DNA of 64,000 bases from an uncultured Saprospiraceae bacterium (GTDB lineage Bacteria > Bacteroidota > Bacteroidia > Chitinophagales > Saprospiraceae). Shown here piece by piece: positions 30,182 through 44,251 of this stretch. A program made the position numbers and the translations under genes. The notes below the pieces were generated by a model, which worked only from the letters and a program-made list of their open reading frames with translations, made no database searches and was not told the DNA's origin. The stretch lies in contig CAKZTD010000060.1 in the NCBI GenBank assembly GCA_937921595.1, positions 1 through 64,000 on the forward strand, given 5' to 3'. How positions within the stretch are numbered: position 1 is the first letter of the stretch; each line of letters begins with the position of its first letter.

Positions 30182-31825
30182 ATGAAAAAATTTATTCTTA
30201 TTTGTCTCCAAGCTTTTTTCTTAAGTGCTTTACTTTTTGCACAAAGTCCAAACGTTGCTGGAAGCGCTCAGCAAATGATTACGATCAAAACGAACCCTGA
30301 CCTTAATAACTCAATCGACCCTGTTCCTCTTGCTGATGTCATTACTGCTGAAAGTTTGAAAAAACATTTAGTAATCATTGCTAGTGATGAATATGAAGGT
30401 AGAGAAACTGGTACTCCAGGAAACGCAAAAGCAGCAGATTACATCGCCAATCAATTTAAAGATTTTGGCCTGCCAGCTTTCAACAATGATTCTTATTACC
30501 AGGATGTTATTTTAAATTGGACCAAGTGGGAAGATGCTAATATTTATGTCAATGATAAAAGATATAAACACCTTTGGGATTTTATTTCTTTCCCTGGTAA
30601 AAACAAAGAGCTTATTGATTTCACAACCAACGAAGTTATTTTCCTTGGTTATGGAGTTGACGATCCAAAATATAGCGATTATAAAAAGAACAACCTAAAA
30701 GATAAAGTCATCCTTATCTACAAAGGAGAACCTAAAAACAGAAAAGGGAATTCTTACATCACCGGAAACAAGACCATGTCTGAATGGACGAGTAATCCAG
30801 ATAAAAAACTAGAGATTGCAAAATCAAAAGGTGTAAAAGCAGTCCTGATCATCGAGGATGAAATTCAGAAAGTTCTCAGCGACAACCGACGAAAACTAAT
30901 TAGTCCTCAATTGACTTTAGGTGAAATGGAAAATGCAGAAATCAATACTGCGAATAGCCTTTCTATCAAAACATCTATTGCGAAAGCGATCATGGGCAAA
31001 CAATATAAAAAAGTAGTAAAGGCTCGCAAAAAGATTAAAAAGAAAGGGAAATCTAAAGCAATAACCTTAGCAACCAATTTAAAAATCAATCAAAAGAAAA
31101 GTCAAAAAACACTTCGAGGTGTAAATGTGATGGGCTATATCGAGGGTAGTGATCCAAAACTCAAAGAAGAGGTTGTTGTAGTTAGTGCACATTATGATCA
31201 CCTTGGAATTCGTGGCAATGATGTATACAATGGAGCAGATGATAATGGTAGTGGAACTTCTACAGTTTTGGAAGTTGCCCGAGCGATGAAAGAAGCTAAA
31301 GATCAAGGCAATGGACCTCGAAGGTCAGTCCTTACTTTGCTAGTTACTGGCGAAGAAAAAGGTTTACTTGGATCTCAATATTATTCTGAAAGACCAATTT
31401 TCCCTTTAGAAAATACGGTAGCGGATGTAAATGTAGACATGGTTGGTCGAGTCGATGATAAATACAAAGACAATCCGGATTATGTTTATGTGATTGGTTC
31501 TGATCGCTTAAGTACAGAACTTCATGAAATCAATGAAACGGTTAATAAAAAATATACTAACCTGACATTAGACTATACCTATAATGAAGATGATGATCCT
31601 AACCGATACTATTACCGATCTGATCATTACAATTTCGCAGTGAAAGGAATTCCAGCAATTTTCTATTTCAATGGTACGCATGATGACTACCACAGAACTT
31701 CGGATACTGTTGATAAAATTAACTTTGAAAAAATGGCGAAAATTGCTCGACTGGTTTTCCATACTACTTGGGAATTAGCAAACCGAGACAAGCGAATTGA
31801 GGTAAACGTTACCGGAAGAAATTAA
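30182..31825 (+). CDS. Secreted M28-family zinc aminopeptidase
   Basis: The product is 547 aa with signal peptide MKKFILICLQAFFLSALLFAQ. A region of about 130-300 resembles a protease-associated insert. Zinc ligands follow the M28 order: His in VVSAHYDHLG, Asp in NGADDNGSGT, the general base Glu and ligand Glu in VTGEEKGLLGS, Asp in VNVDMVGR and His in GTHDDYHRTSDT. It is expected to trim N-terminal residues from peptides in the periplasm or outside the cell. No T9SS tail is present. A very strong terminator follows, then the 224-bp repeat array. Confidence 0.92.
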   Translation: MKKFILICLQAFFLSALLFAQSPNVAGSAQQMITIKTNPDLNNSIDPVPLADVITAESLKKHLVIIASDEYEGRETGTPGNAKAADYIANQFKDFGLPAFNNDSYYQDVILNWTKWEDANIYVNDKRYKHLWDFISFPGKNKELIDFTTNEVIFLGYGVDDPKYSDYKKNNLKDKVILIYKGEPKNRKGNSYITGNKTMSEWTSNPDKKLEIAKSKGVKAVLIIEDEIQKVLSDNRRKLISPQLTLGEMENAEINTANSLSIKTSIAKAIMGKQYKKVVKARKKIKKKGKSKAITLATNLKINQKKSQKTLRGVNVMGYIEGSDPKLKEEVVVVSAHYDHLGIRGNDVYNGADDNGSGTSTVLEVARAMKEAKDQGNGPRRSVLTLLVTGEEKGLLGSQYYSERPIFPLENTVADVNVDMVGRVDDKYKDNPDYVYVIGSDRLSTELHEINETVNKKYTNLTLDYTYNEDDDPNRYYYRSDHYNFAVKGIPAIFYFNGTHDDYHRTSDTVDKINFEKMAKIARLVFHTTWELANRDKRIEVNVTGRN

Positions 31826-31844
31826 GCTTCAATTAGTCAAAACA

Positions 31845-31883
31845 AAAAAGCGCCGATCGGAACAATTCCGATCGGCGCTTTTT
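31845..31883 (+). terminator. 18-bp perfect terminator after the M28 peptidase gene
   Basis: AAAAAGCGCCGATCGGAA and its exact complement flank a three-base loop (CAA) and end in five Ts. It works in both directions and isolates the repeat array from the peptidase gene. Confidence 0.92.
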
Positions 31884-31900
31884 CTATGTTTAAATACAAA

Positions 31901-31947
31901 GTGAGTATAGGACCAATATTACCCCCCAATAAATTGGTCCCACTCAC
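31901..31947 (+). ncRNA. Candidate structured RNA unit 1, 5' hairpin
   Basis: The C-rich loop TTACCCCC (31919-31926) is exactly complementary to GGGGGTAA at 32021-32028 in the same unit, allowing an 8-bp pseudoknot or kissing pair. The flanking TTTGC...GCAAA and TTTCCC...GGGGGAA stretches could form an enclosing stem. Transcription is not shown by sequence; the strand is chosen only for description. Confidence 0.4.
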
Positions 31948-32490
31948 CCGCTTAAGGCCACTTCTGACCTAAAGATCTTTGCATAAATTTCCCTAAAAGT
32001 TCACTACTATTTGCCTAAGTGGGGGTAACTCAAGGGGGAAGCAAAAATCATTTTCTTTAGTAATCCTCTCTCACATTTGAAAGAGTTATTTATGACATTA
32101 TTTTATATTTTTCAAGATTTACAAGTGAGCATGTGAGACCAATATTACCCCCCAATAAATTGGTCTCACTCACCTGTATAAAGTCACAAGTGACTTTAAG
32201 ATCTTTGCATTTTTTCCCGAATCAAATCACTATTTGCATAGGGGGGATTCACAGGGGGGAATAGCAAAAATCATTTTCTTTATTTTCTTATATCGCCTTT
32301 CTCATTTGAAAAGCTTCAGAATATTATTTTATTTTTTAAAGATCCAAGTGAGTATATGAGACCAATATTACCCCCCAATAAATTGGTCTCACTCACTCTT
32401 CATAAGACCACAAGTGATCCTATTTCTTTATTCAAAATGATTCGAAAATCATTTGATTATTATCGTTTAATTTAAACCTTTAAGGGGGAG
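31901..32490 (+). repeat. Tandem array of a 224-bp structured non-coding unit (about 2.6 copies)
   Basis: Units start at 31901, 32125 and 32349, exactly 224 bases apart each time. Each begins with a long hairpin (31901-31947, 32125-32173, 32349-32396): arms of the type GTGAGTATATGAGACCAAT and ATTGGTCTCACTCAC around the invariant loop ATTACCCCCCAATAA. In unit 1 the stem pair is changed on both sides (GGACC/GGTCC instead of GAGACC/GGTCTC), keeping pairing. Units 1 and 2 then share a second small stem, GATCTTTGCAT, a G-run region, GCAAAAATCATTTTCTTTA and a CATTTGAAA tail; unit 3 decays after the first hairpin. No ORF spans it on either strand. Confidence 0.85.
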
Positions 32491-32590
32491 AGGTTTTAGA
32501 GAAGGATAAGATTTTTAGTTTTCTCAAAGTATGTTTAATCTTCCTTCTTTTTAAATTATTTCTGTTACTCCATTTTCAATAACTGTGCCA

Positions 32591-32833
32591 TTACAAAAAA
32601 CTTAAATGTGTTTCTTTAACTGCTTCTTCCTCGATCAAAACAAACTCGTTTGCTGCTTTCACCTCAAGTAATTTATTGTACTCCATTTTATACTGATCGT
32701 AGTCTTCATACTCTTTATAAAGTCTAGTCTCATCGTTCTCACAATTCAATAGAATTTGAAAACACAAGTGATTATCTTTATAATAAAACTTAGTGATCAA
32801 ATTTTTGATTTTAGAACTATGAATGGTGTTCAT
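32591..32833 (-). CDS. Small hypothetical protein
   Basis: The product is 80 aa from ATG 32833. It is acidic, without signal peptide or membrane helix, and has a Tyr/Glu-rich centre (YKEYEDYDQYKMEYNKLLEV). I recognise no family. The codon use is ordinary and the frame is fully open, but there is no clear Shine-Dalgarno sequence (none is expected in this phylum). It ends 100 bases from the repeat array, pointing toward it. It might be a short real gene or a chance ORF. Confidence 0.45.
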   Translation of the reverse strand: MNTIHSSKIKNLITKFYYKDNHLCFQILLNCENDETRLYKEYEDYDQYKMEYNKLLEVKAANEFVLIEEEAVKETHLSFL

Positions 32834-33027
32834 TTTTTAACTATTTTTTCTCATAATTAAAGACGATAGTGCAATTGCAAATAGTGAGCCATATAGATTT
32901 TTTTTTATTTGTTTTCATTGCTTTTTCTTCCTTAACAAATCAATACTACTCCTATTCCATTACCTTTAGGGTTTTAAAAACAGGTCTAAACATTTTAAAT
33001 TCCGCCATTATGGCAGAAAAAACCTCA

Positions 33028-33042
33028 TGGCATATGGTTTGA
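33028..33042 (+). promoter_or_regulatory. Sigma-54-like element upstream of htpG
   Basis: TGGCATATGGTTTGA resembles the -24/-12 pattern TGGCAyr-N4-TTGC, but the -12 GC is GA here. It is 55 bases before the htpG start. A palindrome GCCATTATGGC precedes it at about 33004-33014. Confidence 0.35.
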
Positions 33043-33096
33043 AACACTCTTTAAAGTAGAAAATGATCTTATTCTTTTTAATCAAAAAAAAATAAC

Positions 33097-34959
33097 ATGC
33101 AAAAAGGGCAGATATCTGTACAAACAGAAAATATTTTTCCAATCATCAAACAATTCTTGTATTCTGATCAAGAAATATTTTTAAGAGAACTAATTTCCAA
33201 TGCGGTTGATGCAACGACCAAAGTAAAAGCGCTTTCTTCAAAAGGAATTTTTAAAGGTGATCTTGGAGATCTTACGATTGAAATCATCATCGATAAAGAA
33301 AATAAATTATTGACGATCCGTGATAAGGGGATAGGGATGACTAGTGCTGAAGTTGAAAAATACCTTAATCAGGTAGCCTTCTCTTCTGCTCAGGAATTTT
33401 TAGAAAAATATAAAAACGAAGCAATCATTGGTCACTTCGGTTTAGGTTTCTATTCTGCATTTATGGTAGCGACAACTGTGGAGGTAAATACTAAGAGTTA
33501 CAAGAAGACAGTAAAAGGTGCGGTATGGACTTGCACAGGAGATACTAACTACACATTAGACGAAAGTAAAAAGAAAGAAAGAGGAACTGATATCATCTTA
33601 CACATCGGTGATGATTCTGTAGAATATTTAGAAGAAGCACGTATCCAAGGCTTATTAGACAAATACTGTAAATTCCTTCCAGTTGAAATTAAATTCGGAA
33701 CAAAGAAAGAAACCATCTATGAAGGAGAAGGTGATGATAAAGAAGCGAAAGAAATTGAAGTAGATAATATCATCAACAATCCAAACCCAATTTGGAAAAA
33801 GCAGCCAAGGAGTTTAAAAGAAGAGGATTATAAAAGTTTCTATAACGAGCTATATCCTTTTAGTTCACCTCCATTGTTTTGGATTCACCTTAATATTGAC
33901 TTCCCATTCAATTTAACAGGGATTCTCTATTTTCCAAAATTGAATAATAACCTAGAAGTTCAAAAGAATAAAATCCAGCTTTATAGTAATCAGGTTTATG
34001 TTACTGATGACGTAAAAGAAATCGTACCTGAGTTTTTAACTTTATTACATGGTGTAATTGATTCTCCGGACATTCCATTGAATGTATCCAGAAGTTACTT
34101 ACAGTCTGATCAAAATGTAAAGAAGATCACTGGATACATTACTAAAAAGGTAGCAGAAAAATTAGCTAGTTTATTTAAAAAAGACCGCGAAGGTTTTGAA
34201 GCTAAATGGCAAGACCTTGGTGTATTCGTTAAATACGGAATGCTTTCTGAAGAAAAATTTCATGATAAAGCACACAAATTTGCTTTATTAAAAAATACGG
34301 AAGGTAAACACTTCACTATCGAAGAGTATAAAGAACACATCAAAGCAAATCAGACGGACAAGAATGATAGAATGGTAATGATCTATTCTAATAATCTGGC
34401 TGAGCATGATAGCTTTATTTCTTCTGCCAAAAACTATGGACATGATGTTCTTGAGTTTGACAATGTGATCGACAATCATTTCATGCAGCACATGGAACAT
34501 AAACTTACAGATGTTTCATTCGTTCGAGTAGATTCTGATATTGCTAGCAAATTGGTTCAGAAAGACGAGACACAGGAATCTGTATTAAGTGAAAAAGAAC
34601 AAGAGAAAATCAAAACGCTTTTCGAAAGCAAAATCAAAACTGCTGGCGCAACGGTCACAGTGGAATCACTTTCTCCAGAAGATCAACCAGTGATCATTAC
34701 TCGTCCAGAGTTTATGCGAAGAATGAAAGAGATGCAAGCCTTACAAGGTATGCAGGCCGGAGCTTTCCCGGATAGCTTTAATGTAGTGATCAATACTAAT
34801 CACGACTTAGTAGCAGAGAAACTTCTAAAAATGCGTTCTGAAGATAAAAAAGAAGAGTTTGTTTCTCACCTTTATAATTTAGCTCTCCTTAATCAAGGTA
34901 TGCTTAAAGGTGCAGAGTTGACTACCTTTATCAATAAGAGTATCGAGTTTTTGAAATAA
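33097..34959 (+). CDS. htpG: Molecular chaperone HtpG (Hsp90)
   Basis: The product is 620 aa. The GHKL ATPase domain shows ELISNAVDATTK (Glu and Asn of the ATP site), DKGIGM and IGHFGLGFYSAFMV. The middle domain includes the conserved NVSRSYLQSD loop (PLNVSRSYLQ, with the gamma-phosphate Arg), and a dimerisation domain ends the protein. An acidic insert (EGDDKEAKEIEVDN, about 210-225) links the first two domains. It folds client proteins during heat and oxidative stress in the cytosol. A strong terminator lies 26 bases past the stop. Confidence 0.96.
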   Translation: MQKGQISVQTENIFPIIKQFLYSDQEIFLRELISNAVDATTKVKALSSKGIFKGDLGDLTIEIIIDKENKLLTIRDKGIGMTSAEVEKYLNQVAFSSAQEFLEKYKNEAIIGHFGLGFYSAFMVATTVEVNTKSYKKTVKGAVWTCTGDTNYTLDESKKKERGTDIILHIGDDSVEYLEEARIQGLLDKYCKFLPVEIKFGTKKETIYEGEGDDKEAKEIEVDNIINNPNPIWKKQPRSLKEEDYKSFYNELYPFSSPPLFWIHLNIDFPFNLTGILYFPKLNNNLEVQKNKIQLYSNQVYVTDDVKEIVPEFLTLLHGVIDSPDIPLNVSRSYLQSDQNVKKITGYITKKVAEKLASLFKKDREGFEAKWQDLGVFVKYGMLSEEKFHDKAHKFALLKNTEGKHFTIEEYKEHIKANQTDKNDRMVMIYSNNLAEHDSFISSAKNYGHDVLEFDNVIDNHFMQHMEHKLTDVSFVRVDSDIASKLVQKDETQESVLSEKEQEKIKTLFESKIKTAGATVTVESLSPEDQPVIITRPEFMRRMKEMQALQGMQAGAFPDSFNVVINTNHDLVAEKLLKMRSEDKKEEFVSHLYNLALLNQGMLKGAELTTFINKSIEFLK

Positions 34960-36770: not shown

Positions 36771-37229
36771 GTTTTATAAATATAAAAAATGTGAGGGAGA
36801 AATTACAATGTGCAAGAGAAATAAGCAGGGCAATCCTCAGATTTTCTTTTATTTTCTAATCAAGTGATTGCTATGCACGTGATCGCTACGCTTGTGAAGT
36901 CGTCAAATTATAGTGACCTCATAAGTGTGGTTCAAGGTCGAAGGCCTATCACAATCTCTTTTGGCGATTGTCTTAACTCTAGACAAGCAAACCCACTAGC
37001 CAAAAGACCCAGAAAAAACTACCTCCCAATCTAATTCTCTACCGTTCAGAACATATTTCCTACCATTCAGAACATTGAGTATCAAAAAAACTCACATAAG
37101 TGTTACATCACATATATTAGAGCATCGAAAAGGAGTAATTGCCATATCAGAATTATAACTAAAAGAACTAGGCATTTAATCCAAATTGATTTGATACTTT
37201 TATTACATAAACTTAAAAAAATTACAACT
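36771..37229. other. Intergenic region between sigma gene and three-repeat protein
   Basis: 459 bases with no convincing ORF. It holds the LytTR-type direct repeat at 37041-37070 and an imperfect tandem GTGATTGCTATGC / GTGATCGCTACGC at about 36866-36893. Confidence 0.6.
37041..37070 (+). promoter_or_regulatory. LytTR-type regulator binding site (two 9-bp direct repeats)
   Basis: ACCGTTCAG (37041-37049) and ACCATTCAG (37062-37070) are 21 bases apart, that is 9-bp repeats separated by 12 bases. The first matches the LytTR consensus [TA][AC][CA]GTTN[AG][TG] exactly; the second has one change. The identity extends right to AACAT. It lies 160 bases before the next gene on the plus strand. Confidence 0.55.
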
Positions 37230-37808
37230 ATGTCAAGAATTTCATTAGCTGCTTTAGGCGGAGAAAAAGGTAAAAATCTTAGTCATGCTCTTGATAAGGT
37301 TTGGCTTCAAAATGGCGTCCAAGGGGAAGGAGAAATTTTTGTTCTTGAGCAAAGGCCTAACGGTCGAGTAGCATTGGCCTGTACAGGAGGAGAAACCGGC
37401 AAATACCTTAGCCATGCTTTTGACAAATTATGGTTACAAGACGGAGTGCAAGGAGAAGGCGAAGAATGGCTATACCACAATCTTGGTGGAGGAAAAGTTG
37501 CTCTTGAATGTCTCGGTGGAGAGAAAGGTAAATACTTAAGCCACGCTTTTAATAAAATGTGGTTACAGAATGGTAATCAAGGAGAAGGAGAAGTTTGGGC
37601 ACAGAGTAATGAGCATATAGCCTGTAATGGGCTTAAGTATTCCTTTGAAAATGGAGACATCTATGAAATTAGTGCGCAAGGAGGAAAGACTAAAGTTGGA
37701 TATGGGGCTAAAAGTATAGATTGTGTTGAAAACACTCTCCAGGCAATTATGCCTGATGGGAGTACTTTGAAATATAATGGAAGCCCGAATAACTGGTCTC
37801 CTTTATAG
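37230..37808 (+). CDS. Cytosolic protein of three ~45-residue repeats (beta-trefoil-like)
   Basis: The product is 192 aa from ATG 37230; the open frame upstream is a TTG extension. Three repeats follow one another: each has LACxGGExGKxLSHAxxKxWLQxGxQGEGE-type residues, beginning near 5, 50 and 93. GKYLSHAFDK and QGEGEEW are almost unchanged among them. Threefold strand-rich repeats with a Gly-Lys-Tyr-Leu turn recall fascin-like beta-trefoils, but this is a structural guess. The remaining ~60 residues form a different strand-rich tail (GLKYSFENGDIYEI). There is no export signal. The gene is preceded by a LytTR-type site and followed by a terminator. Confidence 0.75.
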   Translation: MSRISLAALGGEKGKNLSHALDKVWLQNGVQGEGEIFVLEQRPNGRVALACTGGETGKYLSHAFDKLWLQDGVQGEGEEWLYHNLGGGKVALECLGGEKGKYLSHAFNKMWLQNGNQGEGEVWAQSNEHIACNGLKYSFENGDIYEISAQGGKTKVGYGAKSIDCVENTLQAIMPDGSTLKYNGSPNNWSPL

Positions 37809-42991: not shown

Positions 42992-44251
42992 TCAGTTTAT
43001 TATTTTCTTTAAATGATAATTAGTTCGTTTGGATTTATCTATTTCTATTTTATATTTTTTTCGAATTTCTTCAGCGCCAATTACATTCCAATCACTAAGT
43101 TTATTTAGCCAATTTTCTTCTTTCACTCCTGCGATAATTAAATTCACTTCGCTCATATTGGCACCTTCTAAAGATGCTTCACTTAAATTGGAATATAGCA
43201 ATTTCGCAGTACTTAAGTTTGCAGCATTTAAATTTGCTTTTTCTAAAGTAGTCCCGTAAAGATTAACCCCGCTTAAATTGGCTTTGTTAAAAAAAGCGCC
43301 TCGGCAATTAGCCCATTTTAATTCGACATCCGTCAAATCCGATTTTTTCAATCTTGCCGATGTCATATTTACACCATTCAAAATTGCTTTTTTTAAATCC
43401 ACTTCATTCAATTCTGCCCATCCTAAATCTGCTCTATTTAATTTCGCTCCTGCAAGGTTCGCTTTTTTCAAATTCGCTCCCCACAAATCCGCATCTTTCA
43501 AATCCGCTCCACTCAATTTTGCACCTTCTAAGTTTGCTTCTCTAAAATTTGCGCCCCTTAAATCCGCACCGGTCAAGTTCACCCTTCTTAAATCTGCACC
43601 TTTTAAATCTACATTCGAGAAAGAAGTTCTTAAAACTATCTTACTAAATGAAGCAGAGTCAATATTCATTTTTGACAAAGACAACAGCAATTGCCCTCTT
43701 TCTGAGCTTAGCATTTTCCCCGTCATAATCTCTCCTTCAATAGACCGATAAGGCTTGAAAGAATAACTCAATGCGGCAATTCTATTTATCGTCTCTTCAC
43801 TCAAAGAATCATTTGACGGTTCTTTAATCTCTATATCCACTTGATTTAAAATATCACTCATCAAAACAATTAGATTGCCTTGTTTGATAGACTTTACTAA
43901 TTCTGATTGCTGCGCAATTTTATTTTTCTCAATTTCACTTTGCCACTCTGCAATCTTTTTTTGTTTAAAAATAAGCATACTCCCAACGATACTTACCGCA
44001 ACAATCAAAATAATCAACAATGTATTTGAAAATGAATATTTAGAAGCGATACGATTGGACTTGTTTTCTGAAAGATTTTTATTGCGGCGTTTAACAAAAA
44101 ACAAATAGAGCGATACGATTACAAGGCTAGTAAGAAACCCAACAATAAAAGAAGTGTACTCAAATAGATCCGACTCAAAAAAAATATTAAAGACTAAACT
44201 AATTAGAATTAAAAAGAGGACAGCAATAAGAATATTCCTTTTTGATTTCAT
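42992..44251 (-). CDS. Membrane-anchored pentapeptide-repeat protein
   Basis: The product is 419 aa. Two N-terminal helices (about 6-24 and 32-53) and a third (about 72-92) are followed by a helical linker. From about 205 to 385 there are some 36 tandem pentapeptides of the A(D/N)Lxx type (for example GADLRGANFREANLEGAKLSG), which would form a right-handed quadrilateral beta-helix about 17 nm or less in length. Pentapeptide repeats often bind proteins or mimic DNA; in this membrane-bound layout the repeat faces the cytosol or periplasm depending on the third helix. No specific partner is suggested by neighbours. Confidence 0.85.
   Translation of the reverse strand: MKSKRNILIAVLFLILISLVFNIFFESDLFEYTSFIVGFLTSLVIVSLYLFFVKRRNKNLSENKSNRIASKYSFSNTLLIILIVAVSIVGSMLIFKQKKIAEWQSEIEKNKIAQQSELVKSIKQGNLIVLMSDILNQVDIEIKEPSNDSLSEETINRIAALSYSFKPYRSIEGEIMTGKMLSSERGQLLLSLSKMNIDSASFSKIVLRTSFSNVDLKGADLRRVNLTGADLRGANFREANLEGAKLSGADLKDADLWGANLKKANLAGAKLNRADLGWAELNEVDLKKAILNGVNMTSARLKKSDLTDVELKWANCRGAFFNKANLSGVNLYGTTLEKANLNAANLSTAKLLYSNLSEASLEGANMSEVNLIIAGVKEENWLNKLSDWNVIGAEEIRKKYKIEIDKSKRTNYHLKKIIN

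What the first reader, a model, noticed from the sequence alone, without database searches (positions are those of the whole stretch)
31901..32490. Exact 224-bp tandem array of a structured non-coding unit
Three hairpins with nearly identical sequence start exactly 224 bases apart. Each has the invariant loop ATTACCCCCCAATAA. Stem changes in unit 1 are compensated on the other arm (GGACC/GGTCC versus GAGACC/GGTCTC), as selection for pairing would give. In unit 1 the loop's TTACCCCC is exactly complementary to GGGGGTAA 100 bases on; units 2 and 3 keep a G-run instead. Further blocks (GATCTTTGCAT, GCAAAAATCATTTTCTTTA) repeat between units 1 and 2. The array has no ORF, sits behind an 18-bp terminator and ends before a small gene. 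It may encode repeated small RNAs, a sponge RNA, or protein-binding DNA. I know of no described family that fits.
Basis: partly seen in the sequence, partly recalled or inferred. Interest (0 to 1): 0.85.

Follow-up and report, generated by a model that had tools for sequence, protein, structure and literature searches.

The report
Stress-linked G-loop RNA in tandem
Three near-identical hairpins beside the Hsp90 chaperone gene of a Saprospiraceae bacterium belong to an RNA family carried by many relatives, whose stems keep pairing as they change while a GGGGGGUA loop stays fixed; it is likely a stress-controlled regulatory RNA, predicted to act by pairing with C-rich RNA, and it matches no family in the public RNA library.

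Summary
The array is real, but it reads on the other strand. Homologous units match in 139 of 399 sampled genomes of the family, a compact one-hairpin form in 42 of 399; 170 of 399 joined. Stems covary at 23 of 24 pairs, and G-U versus A-C cells (281 to 18) put the RNA on the minus strand. The loop is GGGGGGUA in 102 of 103 units. The RNA lies divergent to htpG (Hsp90) in 60 of 66 loci; some distant genera have it beside SurA-like genes. A sigma-54-type -24/-12 box precedes it: in the window at 32590-32576, and in 30 of 30 compact loci examined. htpG has one too (53 of 60). In Flavobacterium psychrophilum such promoters precede htpG and other chaperone genes (PMC9723704). The compact form is a predicted RNA of about 100 nt whose terminator loop holds the G-run; the window's genus has 3-4 units with C-runs between them. 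Rfam has no match. Likely a stress-induced regulatory RNA whose loops pair with C-run RNA. Transcription is untested, and a small target search found nothing.

The parts
31844..32565 (-). Predicted transcript of the tandem RNA, about 720 nt; its start is inferred as about 12 nt after the -12 element
   Evidence: box at 32590-32576 and terminator at 31883-31844; the transcript itself was not observed
32576..32590 (-). Sigma-54-type -24/-12 box TGGCACAGTTATTGA, directly after the stop codon of the small gene
   Evidence: score 22 of 24, 0 of 100 shuffles as high; position
32474..32496 (-). Leading hairpin AAACCTCTCCCCCTTAAAGGTTT with a C-run loop
   Evidence: similar in the relative L011
32347..32430 (-).
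   Evidence: model R1 87.5 bits
32200..32272 (-). Linker stem GATTTTTGC/GCAAAGATC enclosing two C6 runs (32259-32254, 32246-32241)
   Evidence: fold, genus alignment, positions
32124..32206 (-). Second unit: H2 and H1, G6 loop at 32155-32145
   Evidence: model R1 98.0 bits
31974..32049 (-). Second linker stem with two C5 runs (32038-32034, 32025-32021); contains TTACCCCC, complementary to the loop
31900..31980 (-).
   Evidence: model R1 91.5 bits
31844..31883 (-). Intrinsic terminator, usable on both strands, shared with the convergent M28 peptidase gene
   Evidence: inverted repeat I1
33028..33042 (+). Sigma-54-type box TGGCATATGGTTTGA in front of htpG
   Evidence: score 22 of 24; position
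33097..34959 (+). htpG (Hsp90), divergent neighbour
   Evidence: PF00183, E 1.1e-49; divergent to the RNA in 60 of 66 loci
32591..32833 (-). 80-aa gene of unknown family between htpG and the RNA; present in 29 of 66 loci, so not a fixed part

Best explanation
The array is likely a minus-strand gene for a non-coding RNA, predicted to be switched on by sigma-54 together with the neighbouring htpG chaperone gene, whose repeated hairpins all show the same GGGGGGUA loop, a loop that would act by base-pairing with C-run (UACCCC) RNA. Shown by sequence: covarying stems, the RNA strand, the near-invariant loop, the linkage to htpG, -24/-12-type boxes in front of both genes, and a terminator at the end. 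Inferred: that the RNA is made (about 720 nt here, about 100 nt in compact relatives), that protein-folding or envelope stress induces it, and that the loops are the working part. In multi-unit forms the C-runs between units could pair with loops inside the RNA, storing them or shaping the fold; in compact forms the loop sits on the terminator and would face trans targets only. Tandem copies would raise the number of loops per transcript.
For: RNA and strand: 97.1% of cells paired, 23 of 24 pairs changed on both sides, 317 double-change cells against 80.9 in shuffles; 281 G-U against 18 A-C cells, in the unfitted 16-unit alignment 26 against 1. Loop: G6 in 102 and G7 in 1 of 103 units, UA after it in 103 of 103, around stems that change outright (L056). 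Conserved place: htpG divergent in 60 of 66 loci. Promoter: 31 of 64 array-type regions score 22 or more of 24, 0.25 expected from shuffles; 30 of 30 compact loci have a box, the -12 G 61-82 nt before the loop in the 29 measured; htpG box in 53 of 60; sigma-54 gene in 30 of 30 genomes tested. F. psychrophilum: typical -24/-12 promoters before htpG, groESL, dnaK, clpB and others (PMC9723704). Pairing: 70 C-runs and no G-run in linkers and upstream stretches of 37 multi-unit loci, 17.3 C-runs expected.
Against: No expression data. 9 of 64 array-type regions have no good box on the RNA strand (score under 19). The consensus is recalled, the weights are mine, and the expression used for compact loci was written after seeing them. 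The 29 loci with one model hit show little C-run excess (8 against 4.4, with 4 G-runs), so loop-linker pairing is not general. TACCCCCCA in three genomes: 5, 5 and 5 matches, the RNA gene itself included, against 4, 7 and 3 of the reversed pattern; 2 of the 12 other sites lie before a likely start codon, in unrelated genes.
Confidence: 0.45

Rival explanations
1. A protein sponge: the same sigma-54-driven RNA, but the GGGGGGUA loops are binding sites for an RNA-binding protein that is titrated, as CrcZ or CsrB titrate theirs; more tandem units bind more protein.
For: One loop sequence held fixed on changing stems and repeated up to four times per locus. No trans target found. CrcZ (recalled) is likewise sigma-54-dependent.
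Against: C-runs complementary to the loop are enriched in multi-unit loci, which a protein site does not explain. Many loci have one model hit only (29 of 66), so little titration there. No candidate protein known.
Confidence: 0.28
2. A 3'-untranslated-region element of the small gene: the hairpins stabilise or regulate the mRNA of the 80-aa protein rather than forming a gene of their own.
For: In the window the array directly follows that gene on the same strand.
Against: The small gene was found in only 29 of 66 loci; the box lies after its stop codon; compact loci have the box right before the hairpins.
Confidence: 0.07
3. Only transcription terminators: the hairpins end transcription and the loop is kept for structural reasons.
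For: In compact loci the hairpin runs into T5 or more in 29 of 29 (partly a result of how model R3 was built). A separate terminator follows the array.
Against: 26 ordinary terminators with the same stem type in other families have no G-run loop. Internal array units have no T-run and are followed by more units.
Confidence: 0.05
4. A DNA element (cruciform, protein site or G-quadruplex) between two divergent promoters and two genes.
For: Palindromic, repeated, at a fixed chromosomal place.
Against: Paired changes pass through G-U on one strand: 281 G-U against 18 A-C; DNA pairing would favour neither strand.
Confidence: 0.03

Closest known systems
CrcZ of Pseudomonas (sigma-54-driven sponge RNA of Hfq/Crc; features recalled, papers seen as listing)
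   Same: Predicted sigma-54 promoter and repeated identical sites in one RNA
   Different: Sites here are G-run hairpin loops, not A-rich single strands; other phylum; no protein partner known; no Rfam match
FopS / GibS of Bacteroides thetaiotaomicron (PMC11697453, passages read)
   Same: Bacteroidota small RNAs of paralogous copies ending in a terminator hairpin; some made in envelope-type stress
   Different: FopS copies lie at separate loci, use the sigma-ABfr promoter and carry the seed in a single-stranded 5' part, not in the terminator loop
Rfp36 and the sigma-54 regulon of Flavobacterium psychrophilum (PMC9723704, section 15 part 1 and passages read)
   Same: htpG and other chaperone genes, and one regulatory RNA, behind -24/-12 promoters
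   Different: No homology to Rfp36 tested; other family of the phylum
Sigma-E small RNAs MicA, RybB, MicL of enterobacteria (recalled)
   Same: Would be the same role: an RNA arm of a protein-folding or envelope stress regulon
   Different: Sigma-54 in place of sigma-E; Hfq-type seeds at the 5' end; targets here unknown
GOLLD, ROOL, OLE ornate RNAs (PMC12286853, listing with abstract start only)
   Same: RNA-only assembly through loop pairing is imaginable for the multi-unit form
   Different: Far smaller repeated unit; no Rfam match in the window

Membership tests
Sigma-54-dependent small RNA (kind) | -24/-12 promoter on the RNA strand | tested here: met
   window 22 of 24; 31 of 64 regions at 22 or more, 9 of 64 below 19; 30 of 30 compact loci. 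In silico only
Sigma-54-dependent small RNA (kind) | sigma-54 encoded in the genome | tested here: met
   PF04552 over cut-off in 30 of 30 genomes tested, the window's own included
Sigma-54-dependent small RNA (kind) | transcript made and dependent on rpoN | not testable with these tools
   no expression data held
Any Rfam 15 family | score at or above the family's gathering cut-off | tested here: not met
   0 matches in the 64-kb window; weak matches in 31820-33100, all below cut-off, several on the terminator
Base-pairing regulatory RNA | exposed conserved seed | tested here: met
   loop G6 in 102 and G7 in 1 of 103, UA in 103 of 103; G4-G6 in 29 compact loci
Base-pairing regulatory RNA | complementary partner sites under selection | tested here: inconclusive
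   in cis 70 C-runs against 17.3 expected in multi-unit loci, 8 against 4.4 in one-hit loci; in trans nothing in three genomes
CsrB/RsmZ sponge | repeated AnGGA motifs in hairpin loops (motif recalled) | tested here: not met
   loop letters are YGGGGGGUA, no GGA
CrcZ sponge | repeated A-rich Hfq/Crc sites | not tested
   no scan made
FopS family | Rfam entry and single-stranded 5' seed | tested here: not met
   no Rfam match; the paper says FopS was deposited there, I did not check that the copy holds it

The most novel reading that the evidence does not exclude
The multi-unit RNA is a self-assembling stress scaffold: the G6 loops kiss the C-runs between units, within and between transcripts, building a multimer or condensate whose valency is set by the number of tandem units, made together with Hsp90 when proteins misfold.
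Probability: 0.12. Interest if true: 0.9.

Novelty: new variant of a known kind. Interest (0 to 1): 0.7.

Why it matters
If true, the chaperone stress response of a large, little-studied group of Bacteroidota has an RNA arm, a counterpart of the sigma-E small RNAs of enterobacteria but under sigma-54. The family holds a G-run loop fixed on freely changing stems and exists with one to four model hits per locus, so copy number and loop pairing can be tested directly. A named isolate carries the compact form (Portibacter lacus YM8-076).

Tried and rejected
Folding alone would not have told: z -9.08 for the minus and -7.89 for the plus strand, 20 shuffles each.

Loop-linker pairing as the general function: rejected, because loci with one model hit show little C-run excess. 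Some of those loci hold a further diverged G-loop hairpin that the model missed (L055, L059, L069), so 'one hit' is not always 'one hairpin'.

Spread beyond the family: the one order-level hit outside family f1 of 39 (G582, L101) has no G-run. The class search with R3 gave 92 of 395 genomes at E <= 0.05; of the 30 loci fetched, 4 have the loop and are from the family, 26 are from outside it and lack the loop. The remaining matches were not looked at.

Trans target UACCCCCCA: no enrichment and no shared gene. One site lies 87 nt before a TonB-receptor-like start (L272), one about 40 nt or more before a secreted-type start (L277); too few to count.

Sigma-70-type promoters: 8 found, 5.9 expected, so no lead; Bacteroidota sigma-A promoters (TAnnTTTG) were not scanned.

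Scan of named genomes: 95 stretches, 89 with Bacteroidota titles, 6 not (Yersinia, Clostridia, Exilibacterium, Thermoanaerobaculia, Rhodobacteraceae, Dehalococcoidia). Of the 89, 88 have the outer stem or htpG in the stretch; of the 6, five have neither, and the Thermoanaerobaculia bin has both, possibly a misplaced contig.

Not done: mapping on a species tree; systematic target prediction; pseudoknot folding; protein folds.

Full report
The observation. The window holds three copies of one hairpin at 31911, 32137 and 32360 (+ strand), 226 and 223 bases apart, not exactly 224, with no other copy in the 8.0-Mb genome at up to 3 mismatches. It is the strongest tandem repeat of the window (score 552, next 169) and holds no ORF of 60 aa or more. 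Rfam has no match at its cut-offs.

Homologues. A DNA search of 60 relatives found the array in the same place in three other species of the genus (not in the fourth, G003, 75% complete) and single copies in two other genera of the family; a weak hit in another family (G037, L010) has no hairpin. From 16 units I built a covariance model (R1) and searched 399 genomes of the family: 139 match at E <= 0.1, 97 of 276 among good genomes, 48 of 112 genera. I examined 66 loci in detail: those fetched with the best matches and 35 chosen from weaker ones; the weakest of the 139 were not checked one by one. A broader model (R2, 103 units) over 298 genomes of the order gave 39 hits, 38 in the family; the one outside is false.

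Strand and structure. In the MAFFT alignment of 16 units 97.9% of cells pair and nine pairs change on both sides. Over 101 distinct units 23 of 24 pairs do, with 317 double-change cells against 80.9 in shuffles; that alignment was fitted to the model and leans towards it. Mismatch types settle the strand: on the minus strand there are 281 G-U and 18 A-C cells, in the unfitted alignment 26 and 1. One unit of L056 has replaced its inner stem outright (CCTTCG/CGAAGG) around the same loop. The loop has six G in 102 and seven in 1 of 103 units, and UA after it in 103 of 103.

Place. In 60 of 66 loci htpG (Hsp90) lies divergently upstream of the RNA; the six without it include loci cut by contig ends. 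The 80-aa gene was found in 29 of 66 loci and the convergent M28 peptidase gene in 21 of 66. So the RNA goes with htpG rather than with the small gene.

Promoters. Upstream of the RNA, on its strand, lies a -24/-12 box of the sigma-54 type (TGGCAYR-N4-TTG). Of 64 regions 31 score 22 or more of 24 and 9 score under 19; shuffles would give 0.25 at 22 or more, and the reverse strand gives 7, of which 6 are htpG's own box. In the window the box begins directly after the stop codon of the small gene (32590-32576). htpG has such a box (21 or more) in 53 of 60 loci on its strand, 6 of 60 on the other. The consensus is recalled and the weights are mine. All 30 genomes tested, with and without the RNA, have a sigma-54 gene, so its presence does not discriminate. 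In F. psychrophilum, promoters with typical -24/-12 elements, at mapped 5' ends, precede groESL, lon, dnaK, grpE-dnaJ, htpG, skp, clpB and one regulatory RNA, Rfp36 (PMC9723704; outline, passages and section 15 part 1 read). A survey of sigma-54 regulons reports enrichment of heat-shock chaperones, and of the HSP90 family in Bacteroidia (PMC12316311, passages).

The compact form. Weak hits led to a shorter version: a TTGGCAAG-type box, then a hairpin with a CUGGGGGGUA-type loop that runs straight into a T-run. A model of this hairpin (R3, 10 sequences) finds it in 42 of 399 family genomes at E <= 1e-5; 11 of these were also, so 170 of 399 carry one form or the other. I examined 30 such loci: all have the box (29, where shuffles give 0.30; L255), with the -12 G 61-82 nt before the loop in the 29 measured. 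The box expression was written after seeing the sequences, and the T-run is partly a result of the model. G-runs there are 6 in 22, 5 in 6 and 4 in 1 of 29. The compact RNA lies by htpG, by SurA-like peptidyl-prolyl isomerases, or between both (L245, L246, L250, L252, L266), and in one genus by fmt. Outside the family the class search gave plain terminators in all 26 outside loci fetched. In the scan of named genomes 89 of 95 stretches have Bacteroidota titles, and 88 of these 89 have the outer stem or htpG.

C-runs. In 37 multi-unit loci the linkers and the 150 nt before the first unit hold 70 runs of five or more C, 17.3 expected, and no G-run; 28 of 37 have at least one. In the 29 loci with one model hit the numbers are 8 and 4.4, with 4 G-runs. 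Within the window's genus the linker is a conserved element, GATTTTTGC - C-run - C-run - GCAAAGATC. So multi-unit RNAs seem built to let loops pair with linkers, one-hit RNAs do not.

Mechanism. I take it as a stress-induced regulatory RNA whose G-run loop pairs with C-run RNA. 'RNA gene on the minus strand' (about 0.95) and 'under sigma-54' (about 0.85) are well supported by sequence; 'acts by pairing' (about 0.45) rests on the loop, the C-runs and the precedent of FopS RNAs that repress SusC-type mRNAs in Bacteroides (PMC11697453, passages). Against it, TACCCCCCA in three genomes occurs no more often than the reversed pattern and marks no shared gene. A protein sponge is the main rival.

Novelty. 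Literature searches for Saprospiraceae with small or non-coding RNA, structured RNAs in Bacteroidetes, sigma-54 with heat shock and sRNA, and the 224-motif paper showed no description of this RNA in the rows listed (15 of 387, 15 of 104, 12 of 81, 2 of 2, 5 of 67, 8 of 770); only listings were seen, and most subscription papers are not in that library. I rate it a new RNA family of a known kind with an unusual form: a fixed G-run loop, a compact terminator version and a tandem version with complementary linkers.

Noticed in passing
window 32591-32833 (-): 80-aa protein without a Pfam match, 35 homologues in the large protein database, none with a Pfam domain or a function in its name; it sits between htpG and the RNA in 29 of 66 loci.
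   Followed up: partly
L245, L246, L250, L252, L266: Order htpG, RNA, SurA-like peptidyl-prolyl isomerase: a cytoplasmic and a likely periplasmic folding gene flank the RNA.
   Followed up: partly
L055 near 2406, L059 near 1917, L069 near 2439, L108 upstream of 2497: Further, strongly diverged G6-loop hairpins beside the unit that the models missed, as if old tandem copies decay or re-form.
   Followed up: no
L097, L098: Two unlike hairpins in a row, the first with a GGGGGGAC loop, the second of the compact terminator type: a possible intermediate between array and compact form.
   Followed up: no
L176: A bin titled Thermoanaerobaculia carries the outer stem and an htpG hit; possibly a Saprospiraceae contig in the wrong bin.
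   Followed up: no
window 43425-43568: Tandem repeat of 75 bases with a 15-base sub-period, which looks like a pentapeptide-repeat gene.
   Followed up: no
window 37191-37808 (+): ORF with three internal repeats of about 44 residues (GGEKGKYLSHAFDKLWLQDGVQGEGE type).
   Followed up: no
L263 loop: Loop with only four G (ATAGGGGTAG) in one species of a genus whose others have five, so the fixed core may be GGGGUA.
   Followed up: no
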